From NCBI GenBank assembly GCA_017478025.1, contig JAFVGZ010000027.1, positions 62,001 to 126,000 on the forward strand: a stretch of DNA of 64,000 nucleotides, in the 5' to 3' direction. Positions 4,042 to 62,460 of the stretch are shown here, piece by piece. Numbering within the stretch: position 1 is the stretch's first letter; each line of letters starts with the position of its first letter. The notes beneath the pieces are model-generated. The model did not search any database, was not told the DNA's origin, and worked only from the letters and a program-made list of their open reading frames with translations. Source of the stretch: Prevotella sp. GTDB taxonomy: Bacteria; Bacteroidota; Bacteroidia; Bacteroidales; Bacteroidaceae. A program made the translations under genes and the position numbers.

Positions 4042-4167
4042 GCCTTTGCAACAGTTTATAAATCAACACGTTGCAAAGGCAGGTCTTTTACCCTCTAATA
4101 GTAGGTCTTTTACTCGGTAATAGTAGGTCTTTTACTCGGTAATAGTAGGTCTTTTACCCGGTAAAAG
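4042..4167. repeat. 22-bp tandem array, family A, copy 1, with adjoining hairpin
   Basis: A perfect inverted repeat (GCCTTTGCAAC / GTTGCAAAGGC, 4042-4080) is followed by about 3.5 copies of a 22-bp unit containing TAGGTCTTTTACTCGGTAA. The same unit occurs at 15773, 33297, 44871 and 52464. It fills most of the 576-base gap after DUF3737. The hairpin could end transcription of that gene, but no clear T-run follows it. Confidence 0.9.
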
Positions 4168-4319
4168 TTACTCTATTACATCGCAATATCAACTCTATTA
4201 CTTTCCAATGCCGCTGCACCACCATCTGACAGCAACAGCACCGATAGGACAAAACGCGCATTTCACCTTCTGAGCAGAGCTCTGGCAAGGAGCGGTTACT
4301 ATGCATGAATTCATTTCTG

Positions 4320-4405
4320 TTGCCCTTACAGGGCGCAATCATACACCAAATAAAAAACCAGGGCGCTGCCCTGGGCTATAAGCTTTTGCCCTTTCAGGGC
4401 GTTAT
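4320..4405. repeat. Palindromic repeat R2, half copy
   Basis: Contains GCCCTTACAGGGC, CCAGGGCGCTGCCCTGG and GCCCTTTCAGGGC stems in the same order as the right arms of the full copies at 33634-33825 and 44426-44650. Between it and lepB (4406-4514) there are only small inverted repeats, such as GTAACAG...CTGTTAC at 4413-4443. Confidence 0.85.
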
Positions 4406-4514
4406 ATCATACTGTAACAGACATGAATACTCTATCTCTGTTACGCTACTATAGCAAGCGCTATATGCAGAACAGCCTTTCGGGATGCTCTGCTGTTTGG
4501 TTGCGGGACTTGTA

Positions 4515-5960
4515 TTACTTTATGTTATCCACAAAGCGGAACAGTCTGCTCCATCGTACTCCCTCTGCGAGACCTTTGCGATCGGGGTCGCTGGACCACC
4601 AGATGAAGATGGGCTTGCCCACGATATGGTCCTCGGGAACGAAGCCCCAGTAGCGTGAGTCGGCGCTGTTGTGGCGGTTGTCACCCTGCATCCAATAGTA
4701 GTCCATCTTGAAAGTGTACTCCGTTGCCGGCTTGCCATTGATGAGGATAGTGCCGTCATCCTTCACCTGCAGGTCGTTCTCCTCATAGACCCTGATAGGC
4801 CTCTCATATATCGGGAGGTTCTCCAGAGTCAGCTTTATGCTCTTTCCCTTGGCCGGAATCCACACGGGACCGTAGTTATCACGCGTCCATCCATAGCGTC
4901 CGTTGAGGGGATAGATGTCGCCGACGGTCCTGGAGGTATTGAGTTTCACGCTCTCCACCAGATCTTTGCGTGACAGCATTGCCTTGTATGCCTTCTGTGT
5001 CAACGGCATATAGCCCGACTGATTGAGCTGCGTGAGGTCCTCCTGCGTGATGCCGTTCTCCTTGATGAAGTCCTCTGGCAGGCGCTCGCGCAGCTTCACG
5101 GCATAGGTATATTGCACGTTGTCCGGCTCCTTGTTGGGCTTACCGTCCAGATATACTATGCGATCCTTAATCTGCAACGTCTGCCCAGGCAGTCCCACGC
5201 AGCGCTTCACATAGTTCTCGCGACGGTCAGCAGGGCGCGACAGGAGCACGCCGTACTCGGCAGGCTGACTGAGAAGATAGTTGCGTCCGGCGCTATACAC
5301 GGCCTCGTAATACTTGCGCTGCTGGAGCGGAGACATTGAGTCAACGTCCATCTTGAGGCCGTTCTGCTCCATAATCAGGGTTCCGTAACCGTAGCACATC
5401 TGATAGTAGTCCTGCGGTTGCCAGCGGGGTTCGCTGACAACGGTGTCACCGGCAGGGAAGTTGAACACTACGATATCATTGAGCTTCACACTGCCCAGGC
5501 CCTTTGCACGACGGTAATCCCAGTGCGGCCAGTCGATGTATGACTTGGTATTGATGATGGGCATCGTGTGCTGCGTCAGTGGCATGGAGAGCGGAGTCTG
5601 CGGTATTCGCGGGCCGTAGCTTACCTTTGACACAAAGAGATAGTCACCCGTGAGGAGTGATTTCTCCAGTGAGCTGGAGGGAATGACATAGTTCTGGAAG
5701 AAGAAAAGGTTGATGAAATAGACCGCCACCAGTGCAAACACCAGCGCATCGACCCACGACATGACCATTCGCATGGGGTTCTCAAGGTCCTTCCACCAGT
5801 CCCAGCGTATCTTTCTGGAGATATAGAGATCGTAGATAAACGGTACTACGATGAGTCCCAGCCAGCTCTTCAGCCACCAGAGGAACAGCAGATAGAGCAG
5901 CAGAACGATGATGAACTTCGCCCACTGCACCTTCATATTCGGTTGATTCTTTACTTTCAT
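4515..5960 (-). CDS. lepB: Signal peptidase I
   Basis: This inner-membrane serine protease removes signal peptides from exported proteins. The N-terminus has two membrane segments (FIIVLLLYLLFLWWLKSWLG and a second one at VDALVFALVAVYFINLFFF). The catalytic-serine box is VIPSSSLEKSLLTGDYLFVSK, with Leu where most bacteria have Met after the Ser; the catalytic lysine lies in YVKRCVGLPGQ, and the C-terminal GDNRHNSADSRYWG box is intact. Its length of about 480 residues and the large insert between the boxes are usual for Bacteroidota. I chose the ATG at 5960 (MKVKNQPN) because an A-rich leader (aacaaagaaacgaaaga) precedes it; an upstream ATG at 5996 is also open. dapB lies directly upstream on the same strand, as in many relatives. 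Confidence 0.93.
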   Translation of the reverse strand: MKVKNQPNMKVQWAKFIIVLLLYLLFLWWLKSWLGLIVVPFIYDLYISRKIRWDWWKDLENPMRMVMSWVDALVFALVAVYFINLFFFQNYVIPSSSLEKSLLTGDYLFVSKVSYGPRIPQTPLSMPLTQHTMPIINTKSYIDWPHWDYRRAKGLGSVKLNDIVVFNFPAGDTVVSEPRWQPQDYYQMCYGYGTLIMEQNGLKMDVDSMSPLQQRKYYEAVYSAGRNYLLSQPAEYGVLLSRPADRRENYVKRCVGLPGQTLQIKDRIVYLDGKPNKEPDNVQYTYAVKLRERLPEDFIKENGITQEDLTQLNQSGYMPLTQKAYKAMLSRKDLVESVKLNTSRTVGDIYPLNGRYGWTRDNYGPVWIPAKGKSIKLTLENLPIYERPIRVYEENDLQVKDDGTILINGKPATEYTFKMDYYWMQGDNRHNSADSRYWGFVPEDHIVGKPIFIWWSSDPDRKGLAEGVRWSRLFRFVDNIK

Positions 5961-6023
5961 TCTTTCGTTTCTTTGTTCTGACAGGCCATGAGGCACAGGT
6001 ATTGCGTGTGCTCCGCAAGGTCT

Positions 6024-6740
6024 TTAGAAGGAGAACATATCGTCGATGGTGAGCAGTCCCTGGTGCTCTGCCGTGTATTCAGCAGCGAGAACTGCGCCCA
6101 ATGCGAAGCCTTGACGCGAGTGAGCGTCGTGGGTGATGGTTATCATATCGGCCTCAGAGTCGTAGTTGATGGTGTGTATTCCGGGCACTTCGCCGCGACG
6201 CACGTCATCGATACGCAGTGTGCCGGGCGCTGTCTCATGCAGTCCCCACTTCTCCTTGCGGTCCAGGCGCTCCACAATCTGCTCGGCCAGAGTGATAGCC
6301 GTGCCTGAGGGAGCATCGAGTTTGTGCACGTGGTGGGTCTCAACCATGTTGACATCATACTGTGGGAAACCGTTCATAATCTTTGCCAGATACTTGTTTA
6401 CGGCAGAGAATATCGCTACTCCCACGGAGAAATTGGAGGCCCAGAAGAGTGTCTTACCCTCGTTGGCGCACGCATTGCGAACCTCATCACCGTGGTCTTT
6501 CAGCCACGCCGTAGTGCCGCTGACCACCTTTACGCCCTTTGACCAGGCCTTGAGGTAGTTGTCGTAAGCCACTTTCGGGTTGGTAAACTCTATCGCTACA
6601 TCAGCCGATGCAAAGGCAGGAGAGTCAAAATCCTGCAGGTTGTCTATGTCGATGATGCTGACAATCTCATGTCCGCGGCTGAGGGCAATCTGCTCTATCA
6701 TCTTGCCCATCTTGCCATATCCTATTAATGCTATTTTCAT
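6024..6740 (-). CDS. dapB: 4-hydroxy-tetrahydrodipicolinate reductase
   Basis: DapB reduces hydroxy-tetrahydrodipicolinate with NAD(P)H in the lysine and diaminopimelate pathway, feeding peptidoglycan synthesis. The N-terminal dinucleotide-binding motif is MKIALIGYGKMGKMI, and the active-site stretch ETHHVHKLDAPSGTA at 134-148 contains the conserved His136-His137 and Lys140. GEVPGIHTINY is the usual motif downstream. The 238-residue length is normal for the short DapB form of Bacteroidota. The start ATG at 6738-6740 sits only a few bases after an AT-rich junction repeat. lepB follows after about 60 bases, which suggests one transcript. Confidence 0.95.
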   Translation of the reverse strand: MKIALIGYGKMGKMIEQIALSRGHEIVSIIDIDNLQDFDSPAFASADVAIEFTNPKVAYDNYLKAWSKGVKVVSGTTAWLKDHGDEVRNACANEGKTLFWASNFSVGVAIFSAVNKYLAKIMNGFPQYDVNMVETHHVHKLDAPSGTAITLAEQIVERLDRKEKWGLHETAPGTLRIDDVRRGEVPGIHTINYDSEADMITITHDAHSRQGFALGAVLAAEYTAEHQGLLTIDDMFSF

Positions 6741-6744
6741 ATAT

Positions 6745-6787
6745 GCAAATTAACGAATTAACAAACTTACAAATTTACGAATTAACG
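6745..6787. repeat. AT-rich junction repeat (R1b) upstream of dapB
   Basis: Four to five tandem words of the AAATTAACGAATTAACAAAC type end five bases before the dapB start codon, forming an A/T-only leader. Confidence 0.8.
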
Positions 6788-6825
6788 ACTGACCGAGGCG
6801 CACAAAACACCCACACTGTGAGCTC

Positions 6826-7962
6826 TTACGAGGAATAAGCCTCAGCCTCTGCGGCTGCTATTATGTCCTCGCGTGCCTTCTCTTCGTCGTTCACATCGTC
6901 CAGAGTGAGCTCGTCTATGGAGCGTTCTGCCTCCTCTACCTTGCGGGACTGCTCTGTCTGAACCTTCTCTTCTTCGTGAGAAATCACTACCACCTCGTCC
7001 TCCGCGTCAATGTTTGGCGCTGCCACGGTGGGCATTTCCTCCATCTGCGTGCGTGCTGTCTTGGCAGCAAAGACGCTGTCCTCAAAGGCCGAATCAGCAC
7101 GCAGCTTGCGCAATGTCTCCTGAGCTGCGTTCTGCTGGGCCTCCTTCTTGGAGAAGCCGGAGCCTGTGCAGCCATCGACACCCTCAAGCACTGCGGTGTA
7201 AACGAACTTAGGCGAACCGTTACTGTCAATGGTTTGCTCCTCCATGCGGAACTCCAAAGTGATGCGATTCTTCTGTGACCACTCCAGGATCTTGGACTTA
7301 AAGTTCACCTCTTTATACGCCATTTTATCGATATTGATGTACTTGTCCATCACCTTCTCATTCCAGAACTTCATGCAGGCATCGTATCCGTGGTCCAGAT
7401 AGAGCGCTCCCACGATAGCCTCGAATGCGTTGCCGCCCATGTAGCTATTGTGTGATGCATTGCGTGCCGATGCCATTATGAGGCGTGAGAGCCCCATTTC
7501 CTTTGCCAGCTTGCCCAGCGTGTCGCGCTGCACGAGCTTGGAGCGGGTTGTCGTGAGGAATCCTTCCGGCTTGCCGGGGTATCTTCTGAACACAAGATCG
7601 CCCACTACGGCATCGAGCACAGCATCGCCGAGGAACTCCAGACGCTCATTGTTCAGCTGCTTTCCCAGCTTGCTCTGCTGCTCTGGTGCGCCCTTGCGCC
7701 CGCGTCCCTTGCGGCCTTTACGCCCAGTGTAGGCAGGGTTTTCTGCGTCCCCGTTTTTCTTTTTCTTCCCTAAGATAGTCTCTGCCTCCAGAACTTTCAG
7801 TTCCTCTGCCGTGGCTCTGTGGCCCAGGCTCTTGTGCATCAACGCCACCTTGTAGAATGTTATCGTGTGTGGCAGGACGCCGAGGATGTTGTATAAAGCC
7901 AGATAAAGCTCCTTCTCCTTGCGGAAAGGAAGCTTTATCCTGTCTATAATGTTACTCAGCAT
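6826..7962 (-). CDS. rnc: Ribonuclease III with a basic insertion and acidic C-terminal tail
   Basis: RNase III cuts double-stranded RNA in rRNA and mRNA processing. The catalytic signature NERLEFLGDAVLD is at residues 105-117, the second acidic helix reads NAFEAIVGALYLDHGYD, and a double-stranded RNA-binding domain follows (FKSKILEWSQKN to FSKKEAQQNAAQETL). The ATG at 7962 overlaps the fabF stop by about ten bases; an in-frame ATG at 7998 lies further inside fabF and is less likely. Two features are odd. About 50 residues (51-102), rich in Lys, Arg and Gly (RKGRKGRGRKG), sit between the first helices and the signature, and the last 90 or so residues form an acidic, probably disordered tail. 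Confidence 0.93.
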   Translation of the reverse strand: MLSNIIDRIKLPFRKEKELYLALYNILGVLPHTITFYKVALMHKSLGHRATAEELKVLEAETILGKKKKNGDAENPAYTGRKGRKGRGRKGAPEQQSKLGKQLNNERLEFLGDAVLDAVVGDLVFRRYPGKPEGFLTTTRSKLVQRDTLGKLAKEMGLSRLIMASARNASHNSYMGGNAFEAIVGALYLDHGYDACMKFWNEKVMDKYINIDKMAYKEVNFKSKILEWSQKNRITLEFRMEEQTIDSNGSPKFVYTAVLEGVDGCTGSGFSKKEAQQNAAQETLRKLRADSAFEDSVFAAKTARTQMEEMPTVAAPNIDAEDEVVVISHEEEKVQTEQSRKVEEAERSIDELTLDDVNDEEKAREDIIAAAEAEAYSS

Positions 7963-9211: not shown

Positions 9212-9248
9212 AATGTAGCTTGGTAAATTATATTAGAAGTTTATTAAT

Positions 9249-9304
9249 CAAAAAAGAAAGGTGATGGGATAGTGAATAGATCACCCTCCCATCACCTTTT
9301 TATC
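9249..9304 (-). terminator. Intrinsic terminator after acpP
   Basis: On the minus strand an AAAGGTGATGGGA stem pairs with TCCCATCACCTTT and is followed by CTTTTTT. It would separate the abundant acpP transcript from fabF. Confidence 0.8.
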
Positions 9305-9338
9305 ATACGTCTTTTACGCATGCAAGAAATAACAGGTA

Positions 9339-9575
9339 TTACTTGCCGGCATTCTCGATGTATGCGATAGCATCGCCAACGGTCTGTATCTTCTCGGCCT
9401 CTGAATCAGGAATCTGTACGTCAAACTCCTTCTCGAGCTCCATGATGAGCTCTACAGTGTCAAGTGAGTCAGCGCCCAGGTCGTTTGTGAAACTTGCCTC
9501 TGGCTTTACCTCTGCTGCGTCAACACCCAGCTTGTCAACAATAATCTCTGTTACTTTTGTTTGAATTTCAGACAT
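9339..9575 (-). CDS. acpP: Acyl carrier protein
   Basis: ACP carries growing acyl chains on a phosphopantetheine arm. The 78-residue acidic protein has the attachment site [10 protein letters not shown], with Ser37 as the modified residue. The start [17 protein letters not shown] is typical. It has its own promoter about 110 bases upstream and a terminator downstream, which suits its high cellular abundance. fabF and rnc follow on the same strand. Confidence 0.98.
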
Positions 9576-9685
9576 GATTTTAATGTTTTAATTTTTAATT
9601 TTTAGTCAATTTCTTTATTAATTTTAGCTTCGGGCAGACACTCTTTCCGCCCTTAGCCAGTGGGTATGCTCGTCAAATTCGGGTG

Positions 9686-9717
9686 CAAAATTACTTATTT
9701 AATTCCGAACTACCAAA
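9686..9717 (-). promoter_or_regulatory. Promoter of acpP
   Basis: On the minus strand, TTTG (9714-9717) and TAATTTTG (9686-9693) are separated by 20 bases, matching the Bacteroidota -33/-7 consensus. Confidence 0.75.
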
Positions 9718-9816
9718 TAATTTGACCGAAAAAGCGCCTTTTCTTGCACATAGTGGTATGGTTTGTGCAATTCTCCTGCCGTATATCAAGATTACAGAAG
9801 TAGCTCAAATGCACTA

Positions 9817-9970
9817 TGTTACACTTACCGAAGCATGAATCTGCACTTACCGGAACGTAATTATACGCCTATCGGAACATGATTATACACCTACTGGAAC
9901 ATGATTATACGCCTACCGGAACGTGATTATACACCTACCGGAGCATGTTTTTACATTTCCCCGAGCTGCT
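9817..9970. repeat. 22-bp tandem array, family B, seven units
   Basis: Seven consecutive 22-bp units with the core TTATACACCTACCGGAACAT; the outer ones are degenerate. The last unit (9949-9970) includes the stop codon and final codons of the S41 protease gene, so the array may have grown from the gene end. It lies upstream of the acpP promoter. Confidence 0.85.
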
Positions 9971-11561: not shown

Positions 11562-11699
11562 ATTTCAAATTTCTCGTTTTGTTCGTCTTTTCCTTTGCTA
11601 TTCCTTATCGGGATGTGCGTTGCTCCTTATTTATATATACGCGCGCAAGGGGTATTTCCACTTTTATGGATGTCCTTCCGGGCCGCGGCAGTTAAAATG

Positions 11700-14084: not shown

Positions 14085-14121
14085 AATTCGCTAATTTGTT
14101 AATTAGTTAATTCGTTAATTC
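14085..14121. repeat. AT-rich junction repeat (R1c) before the amidohydrolase
   Basis: Four tandem AATTCGTTAATT-like words end three bases before the ATG at 14125. Confidence 0.8.
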
Positions 14122-14124
14122 GTC

Positions 14125-15521: not shown

Positions 15522-15776
15522 GATAATCGCTTGCAAGAGTCAAAAAAATGCAGAACCCGTAAATTACACTTTGCTCATTTTTATGTTAAAAAAGTAACAA
15601 AAGCGATTTTCGAACCTTCAAAATTTGGCGATATTTGCCAGCACAGTCACTCGCGCCCGCAAATATCGCCAAAAATCTCACAAACAGCTAACACACTGTC
15701 TAACAGAGTGTTCGGCGCTTCCCGCGCCGAATATCATCCACAAAAACCGCCAAAAAGACCACAAAACCGGGGGTAA
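15519..15776 (+). CDS. Doubtful small hypothetical protein
   Basis: An 85-codon open frame begins with a TTG at 15519 inside the terminator T-run. The product (KKCRTRKLHFAHFYVKK ...) is Arg/Lys-rich with no recognisable domain and has no convincing leader or promoter. I have the impression that similar short frames occur in other Prevotella genomes, which would suit a dispersed repeat more than a gene. It ends at the start of a 22-bp array. Probably not expressed. Confidence 0.2.
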   Translation: MDNRLQESKKCRTRKLHFAHFYVKKVTKAIFEPSKFGDICQHSHSRPQISPKISQTANTLSNRVFGASRAEYHPQKPPKRPQNRG

Positions 15777-15904
15777 AAGACCTACTATTACTCAGTAAAA
15801 GACCTACTGTTACCCGGTAAAAGACCTGCTTTCACCCAGTAAAAGACCTACTATTACCCTGCAATAGACCAACTTTCACCCTCCGGAAGGCCATTTTTCA
15901 TCCT
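15773..15904. repeat. 22-bp tandem array, family A, copy 2, six units
   Basis: Six exact-length 22-bp units with the core GTAAAAGACCTACTATTAC; the last two are diverged. No inverted flanks are visible here. The following stretch to about 16120 is AT-rich without a gene. Confidence 0.9.
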
Positions 15905-20757: not shown

Positions 20758-20786
20758 CAAATTAACGAATTAGCGAATTAACGAAT
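20758..20786. repeat. AT-rich junction repeat (R1d) between peptidase and transporter genes
   Basis: The word AATTAACGAATTAGCGAATT spans the end of the peptidase gene (its final ATT CGT TAA codons lie in the repeat) and stops five bases before the transporter ATG. Confidence 0.85.
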
Positions 20787-22644: not shown

Positions 22645-22740
22645 TGCCGCAGGAGCACGCCTTAAGTTACTCAGGAGCACGCCTTAAGTTACTCAGGAGC
22701 ACACCTTAAGTTACTCAGGAGCATACCTTAAGTTACTCAC
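22645..22740. repeat. 22-bp tandem array, family D, in the peptidase leader
   Basis: Four full units and one partial unit with the core TTACTCAGGAGCACGCCTTA. In the transcribed strand each unit can fold a small hairpin (CTTAAGG with CCTGAG). The array fills most of the leader between promoter and start codon. Confidence 0.9.
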
Positions 22741-22858: not shown

Positions 22859-22890
22859 GTGACAGCGGGCATTCCCCGGCTGTCGCACGA
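22859..22890 (+). other. Leader hairpin before the homoserine dehydrogenase
   Basis: GTGACAGC, then GGG, CCC and GGCTGTCGCAC form a GC-rich stem-loop starting about ten bases after the predicted transcription start. No T-run follows, so it looks like a stabilising or regulatory hairpin and not a terminator. Confidence 0.5.
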
Positions 22891-22903
22891 TGATAACAAT
22901 AAT

Positions 22904-24022
22904 ATGAGCTCTCACAAACTGAACTTAATCCTCTGCGGAACGGGCACCGTCGGCGGCACTTTGCTTTGCCAGATGGCGTCACAGCAGCAGTATCTCCTCA
23001 ACGATCGCCGTCTTGACCTGCGTGTCGTGGGCGTCGTTGACATCTTTAATATCCTCCTCAACCGCGACGGCATAGACCTGACGGGATTTACTATCGACGG
23101 TTTCCGCCAGACATTCAGCCAGGCCCCGAAGTCAAGCCTTACTGCTATCCACGACGGCGTGCTGTCCATGAAACAGGAACTGGTGCAGGCCAGCATCGAG
23201 GGCGACGGCACGGTGTTCGTCGATTGCACTGCGTCATACGACATCGCAGAGCTCTATCAGGACTTCCTCTCAGCAGGTATCTCCGTCGTATGCGCCAATA
23301 AGGTTGCTGCCGCAGGTGACCATGATGCCTTCCGCAAGCTGAAGAAGACCGCTGTGGAGCAGGATGTGAAGTATAAATATGAGACCAATGTGGGCGCCGG
23401 ACTGCCCGTAATACGCACGATAGACCACCTTGTGACCTCAGGTGACAGGATTACAGGCATCGAAGCGGTGCTCTCCGGCACGCTGAATTATATCTTTGAC
23501 ACCATCAGCAAGGACGTCACCTTCTCCCAGGCAGTAAAGAAAGCAACAGTGGAACGCTTTGCCGAACCCGACCCGCGCATAGACCTCAGCGGTGTCGATG
23601 TGCTGAGAAAGCTTGTCATTCTGGCTCGCGAAAGCGGCTACAACGTGTCGCAGGAGGATGTGGAGAGCCACCTCTTCGTGCCGGGTGAGTATTTTGAAGG
23701 CACGGTGGAGGACTTCTGGCATCGCCTGCCACAGCTGGACGAGCACTTTGAGAAGCTGCGTCAGGAGGTGGAGAGAGACCAGCACAGACTGAAGTTCGTC
23801 GCAAAGATGGACGCAAGAGACGGTAAGCCGAAATGCAGCATAAGCCTGGAAAAGGTGGATGTGCACTCACCATTCTACTCATTGGAGGGCTCAAACAACA
23901 TCGTTATACTCCACACGGAACGCTATAACCCCCACCCCATGATGATACGAGGATACGGCGCAGGCGCAGAAGTGACTGCCGCAGGGGTCTTTGGCGATAT
24001 CCTTGACATTGCTAATGTATAA
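22904..24022 (+). CDS. Homoserine dehydrogenase, stand-alone form
   Basis: This enzyme reduces aspartate semialdehyde to homoserine for threonine and methionine synthesis. The nucleotide-binding start is LNLILCGTGTVGGTLL, SGTLNYIFDTIS is the substrate-domain signature, then GVDVLRKLVILARESGY, and the C-terminus YGAGAEVTAAGVFGDIL is characteristic. The sequence most resembles the C-terminal half of bifunctional ThrA (aspartokinase/homoserine dehydrogenase), but no kinase domain precedes it here. ATG 22904 is chosen over an upstream GTG at 22859, which lies in a hairpin. Length 372 residues. A 21-22 bp array starts in its last codons. Confidence 0.9.
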   Translation: MSSHKLNLILCGTGTVGGTLLCQMASQQQYLLNDRRLDLRVVGVVDIFNILLNRDGIDLTGFTIDGFRQTFSQAPKSSLTAIHDGVLSMKQELVQASIEGDGTVFVDCTASYDIAELYQDFLSAGISVVCANKVAAAGDHDAFRKLKKTAVEQDVKYKYETNVGAGLPVIRTIDHLVTSGDRITGIEAVLSGTLNYIFDTISKDVTFSQAVKKATVERFAEPDPRIDLSGVDVLRKLVILARESGYNVSQEDVESHLFVPGEYFEGTVEDFWHRLPQLDEHFEKLRQEVERDQHRLKFVAKMDARDGKPKCSISLEKVDVHSPFYSLEGSNNIVILHTERYNPHPMMIRGYGAGAEVTAAGVFGDILDIANV

Positions 24023-24084
24023 CTTTAATATAGCTAACGAATAACTTGATATAGCTAACGAATAACTTGATATAGCTAACTCAT
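24011..24084. repeat. 21-22 bp tandem array, family E
   Basis: Units of 22, 21 and 21 bases with the core GCTAACGAATAACTTGATAT. The first, diverged unit contains the last codons and stop of the homoserine dehydrogenase, and the array ends 17 bases before the ROK kinase start. Confidence 0.85.
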
Positions 24085-24100: not shown

Positions 24101-25024
24101 ATGTATGCACTTGGAATGGACATCGGCGGCACGAATACCGTCTTTGGAATCGTGAATCGCGAGGGCACCGTGCTCGGTAGTGACTCAGTGAAAACCCAGG
24201 AACACCCTGACCTGGATGAGTATGTAAGCACCGTCAGCAGCAAGATTAAGGCTCTGATGCAGGGTGCCGGCATCACTTTTGACGAAATAGCCGGGCTCGG
24301 CATCGGCGCACCTAACGCCAGTATCTACACGGGTACAATAGAGAAAGCCCCCAACCTTCCGTGGAAGGGTGAGAGCATTCCGTTGGCAGACCTGTTCTCC
24401 AAACAGCTGTCGGGCATACCGGTAAAGATGACAAACGATGCCAACGCAGCCGCATTGGGCGAGATGGCATACGGTGTGGCAAAGGGATTGAAGCATTTTA
24501 TCATGATAACCTTAGGCACCGGAGTGGGCTCTGGCATCGTCATTGACGGTAAGATGGTGTATGGCAAAGACGGTTTTGCCGGCGAATTAGGTCACTTAAT
24601 AATTGATCGCAGCGCTGACGCACGCCTGTGTGGATGTGGTCGCAGAGGCTGTCTGGAGACCTATTGCTCTGCCACAGGCATGGTACGCACCGCCCGCGAA
24701 CGCCTGCAGGGAGTCACCATCAACGGCTCAAAGGATGTCTATGACCTGGCAATGCAGGGCAATGCCGATGCTATCGCGATATTCAATGAAACGGGTAAGC
24801 GCCTGGGACAGGCCCTGGCTGACATGGAAGTGTTCTCCAGCCCGGAGGCTTTCGTGTTCTTCGGAGGCCTGGCAAAGTCAGGAGAGCTGCTGCTGAAGCC
24901 TACCCGCGAGGCGATGGAGGAAAGCATGATGCCTGTCTTCAAGGGCAAAACCAAGCTGCTTGTCTCTACGTTGAAGGACGCAGATGCCGCCGTCCTCGGT
25001 GCCTCGGCGCTCATAGAGCACTAA
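24101..25024 (+). CDS. ROK family sugar kinase (glucokinase-like)
   Basis: The 307-residue protein has the ROK fold: ATP-binding MDIGGTNTVFGIV at the N-terminus, GIGAPNASIYTG, the catalytic Asp113 in MTNDANAAALGE, TLGTGVGSGIVIDG, and the zinc site with His165 and Cys177, Cys179 and Cys184 in LCGCGRRGCLE. These features match bacterial ROK glucokinases, which phosphorylate glucose entering from polysaccharide breakdown. No DNA-binding domain is present, so it is a kinase and not a repressor. It follows the homoserine dehydrogenase and may share its transcript. Confidence 0.93.
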   Translation: MYALGMDIGGTNTVFGIVNREGTVLGSDSVKTQEHPDLDEYVSTVSSKIKALMQGAGITFDEIAGLGIGAPNASIYTGTIEKAPNLPWKGESIPLADLFSKQLSGIPVKMTNDANAAALGEMAYGVAKGLKHFIMITLGTGVGSGIVIDGKMVYGKDGFAGELGHLIIDRSADARLCGCGRRGCLETYCSATGMVRTARERLQGVTINGSKDVYDLAMQGNADAIAIFNETGKRLGQALADMEVFSSPEAFVFFGGLAKSGELLLKPTREAMEESMMPVFKGKTKLLVSTLKDADAAVLGASALIEH

Positions 25025-25044
25025 GAATCTGCCATGACATGGCA

Positions 25045-25176
25045 GAAAACGCAACCCTAAACGGTGAACAACGCAACGCCGAAGGGCATAAAACGGAACC
25101 CCAAACGGCTTTCAACGCAACGCCGTGGGGAGGAAAACTCGACGCTGAAAGGCAGACGATGGAACTCCGAAACTAA
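25045..25176. repeat. Degenerate 22-bp array, family F, six units
   Basis: Six consecutive units of exactly 22 bases align on an AAAACGCAACGCCGAAAGGC core although no two are identical. A palindrome CTGCCATGACATGGCAG (25029-25045) leads in. It fills the gap after the ROK kinase. Confidence 0.75.
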
Positions 25177-26463: not shown

Positions 26464-26582
26464 CGAATTGACAAATTAACAAGTTAACGAATTAGCAAAT
26501 TAGCATAATGAAACGACCACGCAGGGATAGCCTGCAGTAATCATAATTTGCTAATTCGTTAATTCGCTAATTCGTTAATTTG
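26464..26582. repeat. AT-rich junction repeats (R1e, R1f) between argB and the sigma factor
   Basis: Two clusters of AATTCGTTAATTTG-like words, 26464-26505 and 26546-26582, flank about 40 bases of ordinary sequence. The second supplies the last seven codons (QINELAN) and the stop of argB. Confidence 0.85.
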
Positions 26583-27463: not shown

Positions 27464-28426
27464 TTATAAATTGCTTATTCTCTCTCTTATTTCCCCTATT
27501 ACACCCTCCAGTTCATCCACGTTGTCGGCCCTAAGCATCCTGATACGTGTCTCGCGGAAGTTCGGTATGCCCTTGAACAGCGGCGTTGCAGCCAGGTGCC
27601 GGCGGGTATGCAGTATGGCCTTGTGCTCATCTCCTATCAGCTCTATGTTGGTATGTAGCAGCTCCAGCAGTATCCGCAGCTTGTCATCGACCGTCAACAG
27701 GTGTGCCTCGCGGCTGAAGAGCCACGGCTGTCCGAATGTGGCACGGCCTATCATCACCCCGTCCACGCCGTATTTCTCAAAAGCCTCATCGGCCTCAGCA
27801 GTTGATGTTATGTCGCCATTGCCTATGATGGGAATGCTCTTCACGGCCTTTTTTGCCTCCCCTATGAGCGTCCAGTCAGCCTCGCCGGTGTACATCTGTG
27901 CCCTGGTGCGGCCATGAATGGTCAGCGCCTTGATGCCGCATGCCTCCAGCTGCACCGCCAATTGGGGCATCACCAAGTGTCCCGCATCCCATCCCAGACG
28001 TGTCTTGACCGTCACCGGAGTGTTTACCGCATTCACTACGGCCTCTGTCATCTCCAGCATCAGGGGTATATTCTGCAACATCCCGGCCCCAGCGCCCTTG
28101 CCGGCTACCTTCTTTACAGGGCAGCCGAAGTTCAGGTCGATGATGTCGGGATGTGCCTCAGCCTCCACAATGCGTGCCGCTTCTACTACGGCATCAGTGG
28201 TGCGGCCATATATCTGTATGCCCACAGGGCGCTCGTCGTCACTTATGGTGAGCTTGCGCACCGTGGCTTTGATGTTGCGTACCAACGCCTCGGCAGCCAC
28301 AAACTCTGAGTAAACCATAGCTGCCCCATAGCGTTTGCACAGCCGACGGAAGCCGATGTCGGTAACATCCTCCATCGGAGCAAGCATCAGGGGGCGCAAA
28401 CCAAGGTCTATGTCAGCGATTTTCAA
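27464..28426 (-). CDS. dusB: tRNA-dihydrouridine synthase
   Basis: The 320-residue flavoenzyme reduces uridines in the tRNA D-loop. The TIM-barrel N-terminus reads LMLAPMEDVTDIGFRRLCKR, the FMN and tRNA site includes LNFGCPVKKVAGKGAG with the catalytic Cys102, and TVKTRLGWD follows. The first codon is TTG (28424-28426), giving MKIADIDLG, which lines up with the usual DusB start, and this TTG belongs to the AT-rich junction repeat. argB lies about 70 bases downstream on the same strand. Confidence 0.93.
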   Translation of the reverse strand: MKIADIDLGLRPLMLAPMEDVTDIGFRRLCKRYGAAMVYSEFVAAEALVRNIKATVRKLTISDDERPVGIQIYGRTTDAVVEAARIVEAEAHPDIIDLNFGCPVKKVAGKGAGAGMLQNIPLMLEMTEAVVNAVNTPVTVKTRLGWDAGHLVMPQLAVQLEACGIKALTIHGRTRAQMYTGEADWTLIGEAKKAVKSIPIIGNGDITSTAEADEAFEKYGVDGVMIGRATFGQPWLFSREAHLLTVDDKLRILLELLHTNIELIGDEHKAILHTRRHLAATPLFKGIPNFRETRIRMLRADNVDELEGVIGEIRERISNL

Positions 28427-28469
28427 ATTAACGAATTAAAGAATTTTTAAATTAACGAATTAAAGAATT
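28425..28469. repeat. AT-rich junction repeat (R1g) at the dusB start
   Basis: Two direct copies of AAATTAACGAATTAAAGAAT; the dusB TTG start codon is the last TTG of the repeat when read on the minus strand. Confidence 0.85.
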
Positions 28470-33150: not shown

Positions 33151-33296
33151 AGTTTATAATTATTTTCTTTGGCTTATAATTAAGCTGTACATATTTTACT
33201 CAAGTTTCTGAATTTTTTCATGCTCTGCAGGCCTCTCAGAGGGGGTCTTTACTGTCTGCCATTTTGTCAGTTGAACTTTTACGTTCTAATAGTAGG

Positions 33297-33392
33297 TCTT
33301 TTACCGCCTAATAGTAGGTCTTTTACCCAGTAATAGTAGGTCTTTTACCGCCTAAAAGACCTACTATTGCAACGCTCTGATTATCAGTGCGT
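33297..33392. repeat. 22-bp tandem array, family A, copy 3, with terminal hairpin
   Basis: Three forward units (TAATAGTAGGTCTTTTAC core) and a final inverted unit give a 16-bp hairpin AATAGTAGGTCTTTTA / TAAAAGACCTACTATT. The flank TTGCAACGCTCTGATTATCAG resembles the arms of the elements at 44805 and 52392. Confidence 0.9.
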
Positions 33393-33633
33393 TTGGAACT
33401 GCCAAATTGTCAGTCTCCCAAAACGGGCGTGACATCGGTCTGACACACATCTCATGCCGGAGAAGCACCTGCAAAATTACTAAAAAAAATCATAACATTC
33501 GGGAAATTGCAAAATAATTCTCTGTTTGGAATGATTTTTAACATACATTTCGCTCCACGTCCCGAGTCTTCAGTTGTTTTGTCTGGCAAGAACTACTCCA
33601 TGAACTTGAGTGCTTTATTTCATATTCCGCGAG

Positions 33634-33825
33634 TGCGCCCTGAAAGGGCAACCTGCTTATAGCCCAGGGAGCGCCCTGGGTTTTGAGGCGATTGGTAGGT
33701 GCGCCCTGTAAGGGCAAAAGATGTTCATCCATGCTGTTCTGCTGCCCTTACAGGGCGTGATTACTATTCGCTTTAGTACCCAGGGCGCTGCCCTGGGCTA
33801 TATGCTTTTGCCCTTTCAGGGCGAT
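33634..33825. repeat. Palindromic repeat R2, full copy
   Basis: About 190 bases read nearly the same on both strands: GCCCTGAAAGGGC, CCCAGGGAGCGCCCTGGG and GCCCTGTAAGGGC on the left, mirrored on the right. It could form a branched cruciform or RNA. Nothing gene-like was found from here to lutB. Confidence 0.88.
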
Positions 33826-33920
33826 TATAATTTGCAGATGTCTTAGCTCCTTCGCTCGTCCCAATGAGACGCTTGCATAGCAAGAACTGCATGACTTCTT
33901 AAATGCTTGCGGAACTTAAC

Positions 33921-37629: not shown

Positions 37630-37740
37630 CCTATAGCCATAACGCGCAGAGGCCTATCAGCCATAGTGCTGAGACTTATCCGCAATAGCATAGAGGTTTC
37701 TCCGCCATAACGGAGAGGCTTATCCGCCAAAAGGCGGACA
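37630..37740. repeat. 22-bp tandem array, family H, in the aldehyde dehydrogenase-lut leader
   Basis: Five units (23, 22, 22, 22, 22 bases) of the type CTTATCCGCCATAACGGAGA. In several units, left and right parts pair within the unit (TCCGCC-TTTT-GGCGGA, CTCCG/CGGAG, TCAGC/GCTGA on the transcribed strand), giving a row of small hairpins starting at the predicted 5' end. Confidence 0.85.
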
Positions 37741-44804: not shown

Positions 44805-45022
44805 CGGAAAAATAGGACAATCCGTCACGCGGGAAAAGGCAGTCGTAACGTGCTGATTATCAGCGGGCATAGCAATAGCAGGTCTTTTAGGGTGTAAAAG
44901 ACCTGCTATTAGAGGGTAAAAGACCTACTATTACCACCTAAAAGACCTACTATTAGAGCCTAAAAGACCTGCTATTGCAACGCCTTGAATATGAGCACGT
45001 TGCGGGGTGTTCTATTTTTCGG
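44805..45022. mobile_element. MITE-like element with 22-bp core repeats, family A, copy 4
   Basis: Inverted ends CGGAAAAATAGGACA and TGTTCTATTTTTCGG enclose inner inverted arms (GTAACGTGCTGATTATCAG and TTGAATATGAGCACGTTGC) and a core of five 22-bp units (AGGTCTTTTA / TAAAAGACCT). The right end supplies the stop codon and last codons of the HTCS regulator. No transposase is present. Confidence 0.75.
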
Positions 45023-52102: not shown

Positions 52103-52108
52103 CACACC

Positions 52109-52402: not shown

Positions 52403-52609
52403 AACAATCGGCGGCGGGCAGAGGCACCGTTGTAACGTGCTGATTATCAGGGGGCGTTGTAAAAGCAGGTCTTTTAGGCTGTAAAAGACCTACTATTACA
52501 CGGTAAAAGACCTACTATTACACGGTAAAAGACCTGCTATTAGAGCCTAAAAGACCTGCTATTGCAACGTCCTGAATATGAATGTGTTGCACAGTGTCCT
52601 ATTTTTCGG
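52392..52609. mobile_element. MITE-like element with 22-bp core repeats, family A, copy 5
   Basis: Ends TGGAAAAACAGAACA and TGTCCTATTTTTCGGG are inverted matches. Inner arms GTAACGTGCTGATTATCAG and GCAACGTCCTGAATATGAA, and five 22-bp units in the core, match the copy at 44805-45022. It joins a truncated PIN-toxin gene at its left end. Confidence 0.75.
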
Positions 52610-54227: not shown

Positions 54228-54257
54228 AGGTTAAGTTATTGTTAGGTTAGAGTGAGC

Positions 54258-56558: not shown

Positions 56559-56590
56559 ATATGTATGTACTATTTTTACTGTGTTATGAA

Positions 56591-58711: not shown

Positions 58712-58738
58712 ATCTGTTTCAGTTTCTTTAAGTTGTAA

Positions 58739-61700
58739 TTAGAATGTCGCGTTAATACCGAAGGAGAATGTACGAGAGCGTGGGTAGCGGTTAATGTCCA
58801 TAGACGGTGTGAGGCCGCTCTGAACATCTACCTCAGGATCGTAACCAGAGTAACCGGTAATCATGAACAGGTTGCCTGCAGAGAAGTATGCACGAAGCTT
58901 GCTCAGGTAAATCTTGTTGATAATCTTCTTTGGGAAGGTGTAACCTACGGTGATGTCCTGACAACGGAGGAATGAACCATCCTCTACGAAGTAAGAGTTG
59001 ATGGTGTTTGTTACTACGTCAGCAGGGTTCCAGAGTGACTTGTTAGCGTTCATTGTTAAGTAGTCAGTGGTCTGGTCGAGCACAGTCTTACTTGTTGTCG
59101 TGTAGTCATCGTGGCTGCCGAAGTCTGCTGTGTAAGCCCAACGGTTAGAGCGACCGAACTTAGCAAGTACGTTGTTGTAGGTTGTCGCAGTGCTTGAGCT
59201 TGATGAGAGAGCGTAAGCAGTAGCGTTATACACGTCAAACTTGAGCATGTAGGTGAAGTTTGCAGAGAAGTCCCACTCCTTGTATGAGCCGGAGATTCCG
59301 AAACCACCCTGCCAGCGTGGGTTGGTGTTACCGATGACGGTACGGTCCTTAGTAGTAATCTTGCCGTCGCCGTCGAGGTCCTTGAACTTCATCTTGCCAG
59401 GCATTGATGGGTCACCTGATGTTGATGCAGCCAGCACGTCGGTTGTCATCTCAGGCACGCCAGGATTGAGCACCCACTTGGTCTTGTTGTTCCACTGGTC
59501 GATGTCGAAGTCGCTAACCTGATACAGACCGTCGTAAACGTAGCCGTAGAGCATGCCTACCTCGCCGCCTACCTGAAGGATGTAGTCATCCTCGCCAGCA
59601 GACTTGAAGCGGCTGGTGTAGTTGTACAGCACGTCGTCGGTAGCATTGAGCTGCTTAACCTTCATCTTGTTGTGACCGATGGTGAGGTTTCCAGAGAGGA
59701 CATAGTCCTTACCGCGGATGAAGTCACCGTTGACTGTCAACTCGAAACCAGTGTTCTGCACCTTACCGATGTTCTGCATCTGAACGGTGTAACCAGAGGT
59801 AGAGGAGATGGTTGACTTGTAAAGCAGGTCACGTGTGGTGTTGATATAGAACTCAGGAGTTACGCTGAGACGTCCGCCCCACAGCACGATGTCGGCTGCA
59901 AAGTTGCGAGTGATGGTTGTCTCCCACTTGATGCCCTTGTTAGGATAGGTACTAGGAGAGGTGTAATACATCTCACCATACTGACGAGACTCGCCGAAGC
60001 CAGGACCGCCTTCAGTTGCTACGGTGTAGCGATAGCGCCACAGGTCAGCGTCGATGTTGTTGTTACCTGCCAGACCGAATGCGAAGCGGAGCTTCAACTG
60101 GTCAATCCACTTAACGTCAGAGAGGAACTTCTCCTTGTTCATTACCCATGCACCAGAGATTGATGGGAACCAACCCCACTGGTTGCCAGGAGCGAACTTT
60201 GTAGAACCGTCGGCACGGAGTGTAGCAGAGATGAGGTACTTGTGGTCGTAGTTATAAGAAGCCTGACCGAAGAAAGATGCTGTGCGGTCAGCTGTTGACT
60301 TATAGGTATCAGAGATGTAAACGTCACCCAGGCCCATGTTGTCGAATGCACGGTCAGCAGTGATAGAACGGTCGAAGTAACGGTTCTTCTGTGTGCTCTC
60401 CTTATACTGGGTGTGATAGATTTCCTGACCCAGGAGGAACGACAGGTTGTGTACGTCCTTGATGTCGAAGTTATAAGAAGCGGTGTTGGTCCAGGTGTAA
60501 GACTGAGTCGTACGGTTCTGGATCTGTGCCACAGGCTGTGAGTTGTACTTCTTACCCTCAGAAGAGAGGTAACCCCAGTAACGCTGTGTGTCACGGAAGG
60601 TGATAGAATAGTTACCCTCGGTGCGCAGTGTGAGACCCTCGATAGGAGTCCAGGTCAGCGACATACGGTTGTTGATGTTGTAAGAGTGCTTCTTCTGCAC
60701 GTTGGTTGCAATGTTAGAGAGAGGATTGTTCTCATCCCACTCTGCCAGCTTGTCAGGGTCAACGTTTACGAACTTAGAGTCGTAGATAGCGAAGTCGGTG
60801 TAACCCTTGGTAGGAGCATACTTCAGTACGTCGATGATACCACCGGTACCTACGCCTTCACCACCGGCACCCTCGTCACGACGATAGGTCATCGTTGGGC
60901 TGTAGTTGAACTTGAGTTTCGGATGCAGGTCGGTGTTCAACTTGAAGTTGATGTTGGTACGGCGAACGCCTGAACCGAGGATGACACCCTTATCCTCTGA
61001 CTGTGTGAGAGAGAGCTTGAACTTGGTCTTGTCGTTACCGCCGCCGATGGCTACGTTGGCCATATAGTTCAGCGGAGTCTCGTTCATCACCTCATCCTGC
61101 CAGTTGATGTTACGGTGTGTAGCATACACATCCATGTCGGCAGGGTTACCGAAGTTCTCACGCCAGTTACGTGCAGATGTAGAAGAGTAAGACACGCCGC
61201 CCTGAGCACGGTCCCATGTATATTCCACGAAGTCGGTGGTCCTCATCAGGTCCAGCTTCTTAGAGATGTGAGACAGTGTCAGACGTCCGTTGAACTCTAC
61301 CTGCACCTTACCAGACTGTGCAGACTTGGTCGTTACGACGATAACGCCGTTACCACCCTTCGCACCGTAGATGGCGGTGAGTGATGCGTCCTTCAATACA
61401 TCGATAGATGCGATATCACTTGGTGGGATATCGTTGATGTTTGACTGCTGGAAGCCATCGACGATGTAGAGAGGCTCGTTGGACTGCGTCACAGACGTAG
61501 CACCACGCACGCGGATGTTAACATCAGCACCTGGCTGACCATCGACAGAGGTTACCTGCACACCGGCAATCTTACCGGCCAGGGCCTCCGTAGCAGATGA
61601 TACCGGGATAGCTGCCAGCTTTGCACCGCTGACAGAACCTACCGAACCGGTCAGATCCTTACGGGCCTTTGAGCCGTAACCGATGGCAACGACTTCGTTA

Positions 61701-62011
61701 AGAGTCGTAGCATCGTCTTCAAGGGTAACATCGAGCTGAGTCTTGCTACCTACCTTTACATTTGCAGTCTTCATACCAACGTAGGAAATCTGCAAGTCAT
61801 GCGACGTCGAGGACATCTTGATGGTGAAGTTACCGTCAAAATCGGTAACGGTGCCATTCTTAGTGCCTTTCTCCATTACGGTAGCACCAATGACCGGCTC
61901 ACCCATACTGTCCTTAACGTTTCCTGTCACTGACTGCGCCTGCAGTGCTGCACAATAGAAGAGCAACATGCTTACGAGCGCGTAGCGAACGTTCTTGAAT
62001 TTTTCAGACAT
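58739..62011 (-). CDS. SusC/RagA family TonB-linked outer-membrane transporter
   Basis: This 1090-residue protein imports oligosaccharides across the outer membrane with TonB energy. A signal peptide (MLLFYCAALQAQSV region) is followed by a carboxypeptidase-like D2 domain (VTGNVKDSMGEPVIGATVMEKG), the TonB box-like region with DDATTLNEVVAIGYG, the plug (ATEALAGKIAGVQVTS, VRGATSVTQSNEPLYIVDG, DVLKDASLTAIYGAKGGNGVI) and a 22-strand barrel ending in Phe (FSFGINATF). It is the first gene of the Sus-like operon, with a strong promoter about 290 bases upstream and a long leader holding a small open frame. Confidence 0.96.
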   Translation of the reverse strand: MSEKFKNVRYALVSMLLFYCAALQAQSVTGNVKDSMGEPVIGATVMEKGTKNGTVTDFDGNFTIKMSSTSHDLQISYVGMKTANVKVGSKTQLDVTLEDDATTLNEVVAIGYGSKARKDLTGSVGSVSGAKLAAIPVSSATEALAGKIAGVQVTSVDGQPGADVNIRVRGATSVTQSNEPLYIVDGFQQSNINDIPPSDIASIDVLKDASLTAIYGAKGGNGVIVVTTKSAQSGKVQVEFNGRLTLSHISKKLDLMRTTDFVEYTWDRAQGGVSYSSTSARNWRENFGNPADMDVYATHRNINWQDEVMNETPLNYMANVAIGGGNDKTKFKLSLTQSEDKGVILGSGVRRTNINFKLNTDLHPKLKFNYSPTMTYRRDEGAGGEGVGTGGIIDVLKYAPTKGYTDFAIYDSKFVNVDPDKLAEWDENNPLSNIATNVQKKHSYNINNRMSLTWTPIEGLTLRTEGNYSITFRDTQRYWGYLSSEGKKYNSQPVAQIQNRTTQSYTWTNTASYNFDIKDVHNLSFLLGQEIYHTQYKESTQKNRYFDRSITADRAFDNMGLGDVYISDTYKSTADRTASFFGQASYNYDHKYLISATLRADGSTKFAPGNQWGWFPSISGAWVMNKEKFLSDVKWIDQLKLRFAFGLAGNNNIDADLWRYRYTVATEGGPGFGESRQYGEMYYTSPSTYPNKGIKWETTITRNFAADIVLWGGRLSVTPEFYINTTRDLLYKSTISSTSGYTVQMQNIGKVQNTGFELTVNGDFIRGKDYVLSGNLTIGHNKMKVKQLNATDDVLYNYTSRFKSAGEDDYILQVGGEVGMLYGYVYDGLYQVSDFDIDQWNNKTKWVLNPGVPEMTTDVLAASTSGDPSMPGKMKFKDLDGDGKITTKDRTVIGNTNPRWQGGFGISGSYKEWDFSANFTYMLKFDVYNATAYALSSSSSTATTYNNVLAKFGRSNRWAYTADFGSHDDYTTTSKTVLDQTTDYLTMNANKSLWNPADVVTNTINSYFVEDGSFLRCQDITVGYTFPKKIINKIYLSKLRAYFSAGNLFMITGYSGYDPEVDVQSGLTPSMDINRYPRSRTFSFGINATF

Positions 62012-62026
62012 AGTTAGTTTGTTTGT

Positions 62027-62212
62027 TTAGTATAGTTGATAATAAAAAAAGTCGTCATAATGCATCTTTAACATCTGTTCCTCTAATGCCCTGAGGCATT
62101 CCGGACACACGTCTCCAACTGCCTCAACAGGCTGTCTGTCAGTCTTTACGGAGCATCCGGTTAGTATCTGTCGGGCTGCTGACGGTCTTATGGAGCTCAT
62201 CTCTGCTTGCAT
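62027..62212 (-). CDS. Possible upstream open frame in the susC-like leader
   Basis: A 61-codon frame starts after a purine-rich AGGGGGTCAA and ends 15 bases before the SusC start, inside the region transcribed from the 62303-62332 promoter. The product MQAEMSSIRPSAARQILTGC... contains CPECL and ends in YYQLY; no family is recognised. It could be a regulatory leader peptide or a chance frame in an untranslated leader. Confidence 0.3.
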   Translation of the reverse strand: MQAEMSSIRPSAARQILTGCSVKTDRQPVEAVGDVCPECLRALEEQMLKMHYDDFFYYQLY

Positions 62213-62302
62213 TTGACCCCCTGCTTAGCCCTTTTGCGGTCTTAGCTTGGTAAAAGTAGCGAAAATTCAACAGTCATTAACGCCTATTAAGGTAATTTGG
62301 TG

Positions 62303-62332
62303 CAAAGATAATTAAAAATTGATAATGAGCAA
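62303..62332 (-). promoter_or_regulatory. Promoter of the susC-susD operon
   Basis: TATCTTTG (62303-62310) and TTG (62330-62332) on the minus strand, 19 bases apart. The transcript would have a leader of about 285 bases. Confidence 0.75.
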
Positions 62333-62364
62333 TTAATCGTACAGTTAAAAAACATTAAGAAATA

Positions 62365-62405
62365 AAAAAAACCGCAAGATTACACTATCCTGCGGCATTT
62401 TTACA
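62365..62405 (-). terminator. Intrinsic terminator after the DUF3108 gene
   Basis: On the minus strand CCGCAGGAT and ATCTTGCGG are followed by TTTTTTTTA. Confidence 0.85.
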
Positions 62406-62416
62406 GCAAAATTACC

Positions 62417-62460
62417 AAGGGTTGGTAATCGGGTTAACAAGGGTTGGTAATACGTTTAAG
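62417..62460. repeat. 22-bp direct repeat, family K, two units
   Basis: Two adjacent 22-base units starting AAGGGTTGGTAAT, three bases beyond the DUF3108 stop codon. The second half of each unit has diverged. Confidence 0.75.

What the first reader, a model, noticed from the sequence alone, without database searches (positions are those of the whole stretch)
4080..62460. Intergenic DNA is full of tandem arrays with a common 21-22 bp period but unrelated sequences
Eleven arrays were read directly: 4080, 9817, 15773, 22645, 24011, 25045, 33297, 37630, 44871, 52464 and 62417, plus a 21-bp coding version at 2861. Five share one unit (family A); the other six have different cores (for example TTATACACCTACCGGAACAT and TTACTCAGGAGCACGCCTTA), yet every unit is 21-23 bases, about two DNA turns. 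Different sequences with the same period suggest a process that creates repeats of fixed length, such as slippage or copying guided by a protein or RNA, and not spread of one element. Direct repeats of about 22 bp are reported in the relative Porphyromonas gingivalis; I cannot say whether they are the same.
Basis: partly seen in the sequence, partly recalled or inferred. Interest (0 to 1): 0.82.

Follow-up and report, generated by a model that had tools for sequence, protein, structure and literature searches.

The report
Intergenic 22-bp minisatellite arrays
The gaps between genes in this bacterium hold many short tandem arrays that repeat every 22 base pairs; some are spread copies of a few elements, others were found at one place only, and related species show the same repeat length with other sequences, a known but unexplained kind of bacterial repeat.

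Summary
All 11 arrays are real. Exact recurrences in intergenic DNA peak at 22 bp in this genome and in pooled congeners, not in coding DNA and not in sampled other Bacteroidales families. "Unrelated sequences" is half right: five arrays are family A, 22650 and 62412 belong to two other dispersed families, and 9820, 25041 and 37636 were found at one place only (weak for 37636). The 24002 array starts with a gene's 3' end that is single-copy in the sister species. With related units merged, 22 bp is the commonest period in 11 genomes of the genus (27 of 56 families), but only 4 of 19 here. Nine family A arrays with both flanks matched in the sister species keep their unit number; one has two units flipped in register, one is turned round. 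Different cores keep the 22-bp register in 31 of 31 pairs. RNA hairpins are no general explanation. "Constant repeat size, variable sequence" repeats (20-23 nt) are published (PMC8161180), as is a 23-nt minisatellite within a MITE of P. gingivalis (PMC4596501). A new member of a known, unexplained kind.

The parts
4081..4168 (-). family A array, 4 units, followed in register by an AAGTTACTC-core unit
9820..9955 (+). array found at this place only, 6.2 units of 22 bp, TACACCTACCGGAACATGATTA; the gap is 133 bp shorter in the sister species
15773..15881 (+). family A array, 5 units; same unit number and spacing in the sister species with 24 substitutions
22650..22739 (+). family B array (AAGTTACT core), 4 units; absent from the sister species (gap 89 bp shorter, clean junction)
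24002..24080 (+). array of 21/22-bp units whose first unit is the coding 3' end of ORF 22859-24022; that end is single-copy in the sister species
25041..25125 (+). array found at this place only, period 22/44, 16 bp after the stop of ORF 24101-25024
33256..33413 (-). family A MITE-like element: palindromic ends CTGCCATTTTGTCAG and CTGCCAAATTGTCAG around 22-bp units at about 33286-33368; the 718-bp stretch that holds it is absent from the sister species, though many related copies are in both genomes
37636..37729 (.). array of 4.2 units GCCATAACGGAGAGGCTTATCC, found at this place only (weak test)
44874..44976 (+). family A array, one inverted plus four direct units; same number, order and spacing in the sister species; folds into a long hairpin (z about -8)
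52461..52563 (+). family A array, one inverted plus four direct units; same number, order and spacing in the sister species
62412..62459 (+). family C array (related to TTACCAAGCCTTGGTAA palindrome units), 2.2 units
2860..2918 (+). 21-bp array inside ORF 2455-3045; fits a seven-codon repeat and not the 22-bp class (inference)

Best explanation
These are intergenic minisatellites of the 'constant size, variable sequence' kind. Shown: in this genus 22 bp is the prevailing period whatever the unit; arrays are of two sorts, dispersed mosaic cassettes (families A, B, C; family A cassettes are MITE-like with inverted terminal units and palindromic ends) and arrays found at one place; matched family A arrays keep unit number and spacing between sister species while their sequence changes, and can flip in register; other arrays are wholly present or absent. 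Inferred: new 22-bp duplications arise by ordinary slippage or template switching, and arrays with a pitch of two helical turns are the ones kept, most likely because a DNA-binding protein (perhaps nucleoid-associated) binds short cores cooperatively along one face of the helix; cassettes spread through a transposase or recombinase acting in trans. The protein is not identified.
For: Lag peak in intergenic and not coding DNA; same period in congeners with other sequences (families merged). AAGTWRST-N14-AAGTWRST: 53+47 places, 0 for the reversed pattern. Two alternative cores (TTACT and AGG) lie at multiples of 22 in 31 of 31 same-strand pairs within 100 bp, and inverted AGG cores share one register in 38 of 39 pairs within 80 bp. 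Nine family A arrays with both flanks matched to the sister species, and three with one flank matched, all have the same number of units; five of them, compared base by base without any gap, carry 69 substitutions in 474 bases at identical unit offsets (one of the five has one matched flank), where other intergenic DNA gives 14.8 indel events per 100 substitutions (which includes some forced alignment). Arrays are fewer than expected in divergent gaps, 7 against 14.4, and in co-directional gaps lie nearer the upstream stop in 32 of 43. Two helical turns and protein polymerising on the repeats is also the suggestion of PMC8161180 (section 14 read).
Against: No binding protein was identified. 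TRF arrays of period 22 are no poorer in indels than arrays of other periods (48 of 71 against 26 of 39 diverged arrays indel-free), so pitch maintenance rests on the matched family A arrays. Register between cores is also kept if one core mutated into the other. Arrays found at one place share no visible core with A/B, so one protein could not read all by sequence. In this genome alone, merged families do not peak strongly at 22 (4 of 19). 22-bp arrays also turned up in records of other named groups (L163, L170, L171, L180), so the restriction to this genus may not hold.
Confidence: 0.45

Rival explanations
1. Selfish MITE-like cassettes with an internal minisatellite (BrickBuilt-like). The 22-bp units are binding sites or structural parts needed by the enzyme that moves the cassette; there is no host function.
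For: Family A sits in cassettes with inverted terminal units and palindromic CTGACAAAATGGCAG ends; the element query gives 78 and 79 matches (overlapping ones counted separately) in the two genomes; arrays are present/absent between sister species; long hairpin fold, z about -8. P. gingivalis has a 23-nt minisatellite inside a MITE (PMC4596501).
Against: Arrays found at one place, an array that starts with a coding end, and many unrelated 22-bp families in G026 are not copies of one cassette. No REP-type transposase (Y1_Tnp) in the 85%-complete genome; other transposases were not searched. No clear target-site duplication was seen by eye.
Confidence: 0.26
2. A mutational ruler: a polymerase, nuclease or recombinase of this genus makes tandem duplications of about 22 bp from any sequence; no selection for pitch.
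For: One prevailing period with many unrelated units across congeners; likely local birth at 24002 and perhaps 9820; no peak in sampled other families.
Against: Few birth cases, direction of change not proved (loss in the sister is possible), and 24002 is 21/22; no 22-bp peak in coding DNA, where a ruler should also act; no enzyme identified; in this genome merged families at 21 are as many as at 22; no unit gained or lost in matched family A arrays.
Confidence: 0.16
3. RNA-level function: each unit forms a small hairpin at a 22-nt pitch in 3' UTRs (mRNA protection or termination).
For: Dyad symmetry is enriched in 22-bp intergenic units, 18 of 73 at p<=0.05 and 11 of 73 at p<=0.01, most clearly in G026; arrays favour 3' sides of genes.
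Against: No covariation between the seven dyad pairs of 226 family A unit contexts: observed pairing is within 2 of expectation or below it; arrays other than family A folded here reach z -2.2 at best; 0 Rfam matches in the window; family B units are mostly not dyads.
Confidence: 0.09
4. Artefact or chance: coding repeats, low-complexity 7-bp ladders, or the repeat finder's preferences.
For: The 21-bp class is partly of this sort.
Against: Independent lag counts peak at 22, 44 and 66 in intergenic DNA only, with the same method giving no such peak in other families.
Confidence: 0.02

Closest known systems
Constant-size, variable-sequence bacterial tandem repeats (20-21/20-23 nt and 52 nt; Subirana and Messeguer, PMC8161180)
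   Same: One dominant non-coding repeat length, several unit families of that length, species-specific sequences, a short sequence shared by repeats of a species, about two helical turns.
   Different: Here 22 bp, in a Bacteroidales genus. Added here: in-register flips, unit number and spacing kept between sister species at changed sequence, an array starting with a coding end, frequent dyad units. They report array length seldom conserved between strains for the 52-nt class. Many arrays here have fewer than the 4 repeats their search required.
BrickBuilt MITE/minisatellite of Porphyromonas gingivalis (PMC4596501)
   Same: Intergenic minisatellite inside a multi-copy element with leader, tail and inverted ends; predicted long stem-loops; presence differs between strains.
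   Different: 23-nt unit and one family; here 22 bp and several families, some found at one place. Sequence similarity was not tested.
REP/BIME mosaics with RAYT transposases (recalled, not looked up)
   Same: Intergenic, palindromic modules, mosaic, in both orientations.
   Different: No Y1_Tnp gene found in this genome; strict 22-bp tandem pitch.

Membership tests
Constant-size, variable-sequence tandem repeats (PMC8161180) | One dominant repeat length in the genome's non-coding tandem repeats | tested here: met
   Lag peak at 22 in the own sample and G026; 72 of 107 intergenic arrays of period 16-28 in 11 genomes of the genus, low-complexity units dropped
Constant-size, variable-sequence tandem repeats (PMC8161180) | Several unit families of that length in one genome | tested here: met
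   G026 12 of 15 families at 22; in the window's genome 4 of 19
Constant-size, variable-sequence tandem repeats (PMC8161180) | Species-specific sequences | tested here: met
   Family A core in 0 of 59 other genomes, 35 of them congeners, but shared with the sister G194, which was not among them; AAGTTACT pair in 5 of 249 genomes of the genus, this one included, frequent only in it and its sister
Constant-size, variable-sequence tandem repeats (PMC8161180) | Short sequence shared by repeats of a species | tested here: met
   AAGTWRST at 22-bp spacing, 53+47 places, reversed control 0; not shared by the single-place arrays
Constant-size, variable-sequence tandem repeats (PMC8161180) | At least four repeats per array (their search setting) | tested here: inconclusive
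   Copy numbers 1.9 to 9.3 among period-22 rows; many below 4
BrickBuilt-type MITE with minisatellite | Flanking leader/tail with inverted ends | tested here: met
   One class of family A elements:
BrickBuilt-type MITE with minisatellite | 23-nt unit | tested here: not met
   22 bp
BrickBuilt-type MITE with minisatellite | Target-site duplication | tested here: inconclusive
   Read by eye alignments; none clear
REP/RAYT | Y1_Tnp (PF01797) gene in the genome | tested here: not met
   0 matches; the control search rings in 5 of 14 genomes; genome 85% complete
CRISPR array | Identical repeats separated by unique spacers | tested here: not met
   Units follow one another directly and the variable bases are alike within an array
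Known structured RNA (Rfam 15) | Match above a family's gathering score | tested here: not met
   0 matches in the window

The most novel reading that the evidence does not exclude
A lineage-specific machinery measures two helical turns: in this genus a protein (or a copying enzyme) creates or retains tandem arrays solely by their 22-bp pitch, with the sequence left free to change from species to species and from array to array; 23 bp (P. gingivalis, and two arrays in G053) and 20-21 or 52 bp (Bacillus) would be the settings of related machineries elsewhere.
Probability: 0.25. Interest if true: 0.78.

Novelty: new member of a known kind. Interest (0 to 1): 0.45.

Why it matters
Why some bacteria keep tandem repeats of one length and any sequence is an open question in print. 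This genus offers at least 249 held species, a close sister pair, and arrays that keep number and spacing while the sequence changes, so the rival causes (binding pitch, mutational ruler, mobile cassette) can be separated by ordinary experiments.

Tried and rejected
RAYT/REP mobilisation: no Y1_Tnp in the genome. Per-unit RNA hairpin: no covariation, weak folds outside family A. Rfam: nothing. Special scarcity of indels in 22-bp arrays by TRF statistics: not seen. First clustering of families chained through long units and was replaced by a stricter one (then 67). A first spacing pattern had a wrong gap length (23-bp pitch) and gave 0 matches; one search is the right one.

Three apparent one-unit differences (L147/L138, L030/L134, L135/L148) came from a decayed flanking unit counted on one side only, so 'changes by whole units' was dropped. 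For this the confidence in pitch maintenance was raised slightly and the two rivals above it lowered by 0.01.

Not usable as orthologs: 4081 had no orthologous gap and no flank match; 25041, 37636 and 62412 could not be aligned. Of the 16 locus pairs, L002/L050 share only 320 bp, L023/L154 is the same locus as L141/L154, L102/L160, L101/L100, L018/L140, L009/L110 and L015/L110 have no shared match next to an array on both sides, L021/L099 have no array, and L026/L109 has the array in the sister only. L103, L005 and L107 have one matched flank.

Taxonomy: genus not named by the tools; the sister genome's contig C69 matches in length and gap sequence the record DEKQ01000088.1, Prevotellaceae bacterium UBA2718. 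Literature: seven searches were answered. The earlier Subirana and Messeguer paper and the P. gingivalis genome paper were not read; they are known only through citing papers.
Full report
Observation. Tandem Repeats Finder reports an array at every one of the 11 coordinates. Nine have period 22; 24002 is called 21 and alternates 21 and 22 by eye; 25041 is called 22 and 44. To be free of that program's preferences I counted exact 8-base recurrences at each lag, splitting intergenic from coding by a simple ORF call. In 57,080 intergenic bases of a 464-kb sample of this genome there are 77 at lag 22, 63 at 44 and 32 at 66, against 6 at 20 and 9 at 23. Coding DNA has 12 at 22. Lag 21 (36) fits a 7-base ladder. 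In 320 kb from nine congeners the intergenic counts are 34, 21 and 13 at 22, 44 and 66, with 2 each at 20 and 23 but 30 at 21 and 39 at 14, the same ladder. Single congeners differ: G026 56 at lag 22, G016 8, G024 only 6 against 5 at 21 and 7 at 10. In 273 kb from 20 genomes of other Bacteroidales families lag 22 has 2, and in 540 kb from seven of these genomes (some stretches shared) it totals 6 over 55,840 intergenic bases. So the peak is real and was not seen in the other families sampled. But 22-bp arrays with other sequences turned up in four further records, titled Candidatus Equicola, Prevotella, Bergeyella and Clostridia, so the limit of the phenomenon is not known.

Are the units unrelated? 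Family A (GTAAAAGACCTACTATTAC plus 3) has 159 places with up to 2 mismatches in this genome (control 1) and none in 59 other genomes with up to 1 mismatch, 35 of them congeners; the sister G194, not among those 59, has it. A second motif, AAGTWRST spaced by 22, has 53 + 47 places, with 0 for the reversed control; the stricter AAGTTACT pair occurs in 5 of 249 genomes of the genus, this one included, and is frequent only here and in G194. Both cores occur in the same arrays: 31 of 31 pairs of a TTACT core and an AGG core within 100 bp on one strand lie at multiples of 22, and 38 of 39 inverted AGG pairs within 80 bp share one register. A third family is the palindrome TTACCAAG.CTTGGTAA, to which 62412 belongs. 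In contrast the units of 9820, 37636 and 25041 were found nowhere else in this assembly or the sister; the 37636 pattern found only one of that array's own units, so that negative is weak. When related units are merged, 11 genomes of the genus, this one included, give 27 of 56 families of period 16-28 at 22, 9 at 21 and 6 at 23; G026 alone has 12 of 15 at 22; this genome has 4 of 19 at 22 and 4 at 21; G003 and G004 have none at 22. Low-complexity and coding arrays were dropped first. Families were merged per genome, so one shared by sister species counts twice. Other families gave 1 of 5.

Comparison with a sister species. G194 is 87% identical in coding DNA; its contig C69 has the length and gap sequence of a record named Prevotellaceae bacterium UBA2718. 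The 22650 array is missing there with a clean junction and a difference of 89 bp; the 9820 array is missing with a difference of 133 bp; the 24002 array is missing while its first unit, the last codons of the upstream gene, is present once. Local growth is the simplest reading, but loss in the sister is not excluded. The stretch holding the 33286 element (718 bp) is missing. In the other direction, the sister array at L109:10157 is missing here. Flank matching pairs nine family A arrays on both sides (15773, 44895, 52481, L104, L143, L147, L141, L030, L135) and three on one side (L103, L005, L107). All twelve have the same number of units in both species. Five of them (15773, 44895, 52481, L103, L104) have identical unit offsets and orientation and, compared without gaps, 69 substitutions in 474 bases. 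Other intergenic DNA in the aligned region shows 14.8 indel events per 100 substitutions, a figure that includes some forced alignment. At L141/L154 the two middle units are inverted in register; at L030/L134 the whole element is turned round. At L143/L152 the leader sequences differ although the units match. Against special maintenance, arrays of period 22 found by the repeat finder are no poorer in indels than arrays of other periods: 48 of 71 and 26 of 39 diverged arrays are indel-free.

Anatomy. Family A arrays often begin with one inverted unit; one class of elements is bounded by the palindrome CTGACAAAATGGCAG in either orientation, so it looks like a small mobile cassette; the element query gives 78 and 79 matches, overlapping ones included, in the two genomes. 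One such array region folds into a long hairpin (z -8.0 and -6.9 for its two strands), while four other arrays give z between -2.2 and +0.9. Dyad symmetry is enriched in 22-bp intergenic units, 18 of 73 at p<=0.05 and 11 of 73 at p<=0.01 (the arrays are not independent), and is plain in G026, for example TTGGACA-N4-TGTCCAA plus 4. Yet in 226 distinct family A unit contexts the seven dyad pairs show no more pairing than independent columns would. Arrays lie in 43 co-directional, 17 convergent and 7 divergent gaps of 67 (expected 37.9, 14.7 and 14.4), and in co-directional gaps nearer the upstream stop in 32 of 43.

Mechanism. Shown: a prevailing 22-bp pitch in the genus, cassette spread, arrays at single places, kept number and spacing under sequence change for family A, in-register flips. 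Inferred: that duplication by slippage or template switching supplies arrays and that retention favours two helical turns because a protein binds the cores cooperatively. A selfish cassette explains families A to C but not the single-place arrays or the many families of G026; a mutational ruler explains the latter but not the lack of a coding peak or the shared cores. RNA hairpins fail as a general account.

What is known. PMC8161180 (abstract, introduction, discussion and the first part of its results read) describes bacterial tandem repeats of constant size and variable sequence, 20-21 and 52 nt in Bacillus and 20-23 nt in many groups, species-specific and with a short shared sequence, and suggests a protein that needs a constant repeat size to polymerise on DNA. 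PMC4596501 (abstract, sections 5 and 8, and passages read) describes BrickBuilt, a 23-nt minisatellite in a MITE of P. gingivalis. PMC6749651 was seen as an abstract, PMC5771137 as passages. The present arrays fit the first class on its main features and, for family A, resemble the second. I found no paper on 22-bp arrays in this genus in seven answered searches; none named the genus, which the tools do not give, and the library lacks most subscription journals.

Noticed in passing
window 2419-2458, 6748-6788, 14085-14123, 20760-20786, 26466-26502, 26544-26580, 28419-28469: A second kind of tandem repeat: AT-rich 8-bp units (AATTAACG / TAATTCGT type) at several places, mostly gaps; lag counts also show separate 7-bp and 8-bp ladders.
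   Followed up: partly
window 33633-33826: Another dispersed palindromic element (GCCCTGAAAGGGC...GCCCAGGG type) next to the 33286 array, with several copies in the sister genome.
   Followed up: no
L074:8231-8298 and L074:9647-9736: A genome of another Bacteroidales family (G053) has two arrays with a 23-bp unit CTCACAAGYTTGTCA..., a dyad; possibly the same phenomenon with another pitch.
   Followed up: partly
L167, just downstream of 3487: An 11-bp tandem array (AACTCAATCGG type, half of 22; read by eye) directly after the relative of the window's 24101-25024 gene in MAG RUG11335.
   Followed up: no
L163:54-120, L170:1593-1658, L171:914-987, L180:3552-3636: 22-bp arrays with yet other sequences in records titled Candidatus Equicola, Prevotella, Bergeyella and Clostridia, so the period may be wider than this genus.
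   Followed up: no
L009:17239, L012:877 (minus), L055:1706 (minus): Arrays that switch in register from AAGTTACTYACATC units to AAGTAGGCYAACGC-like units, as if two words were allowed at the same place of the unit.
   Followed up: partly
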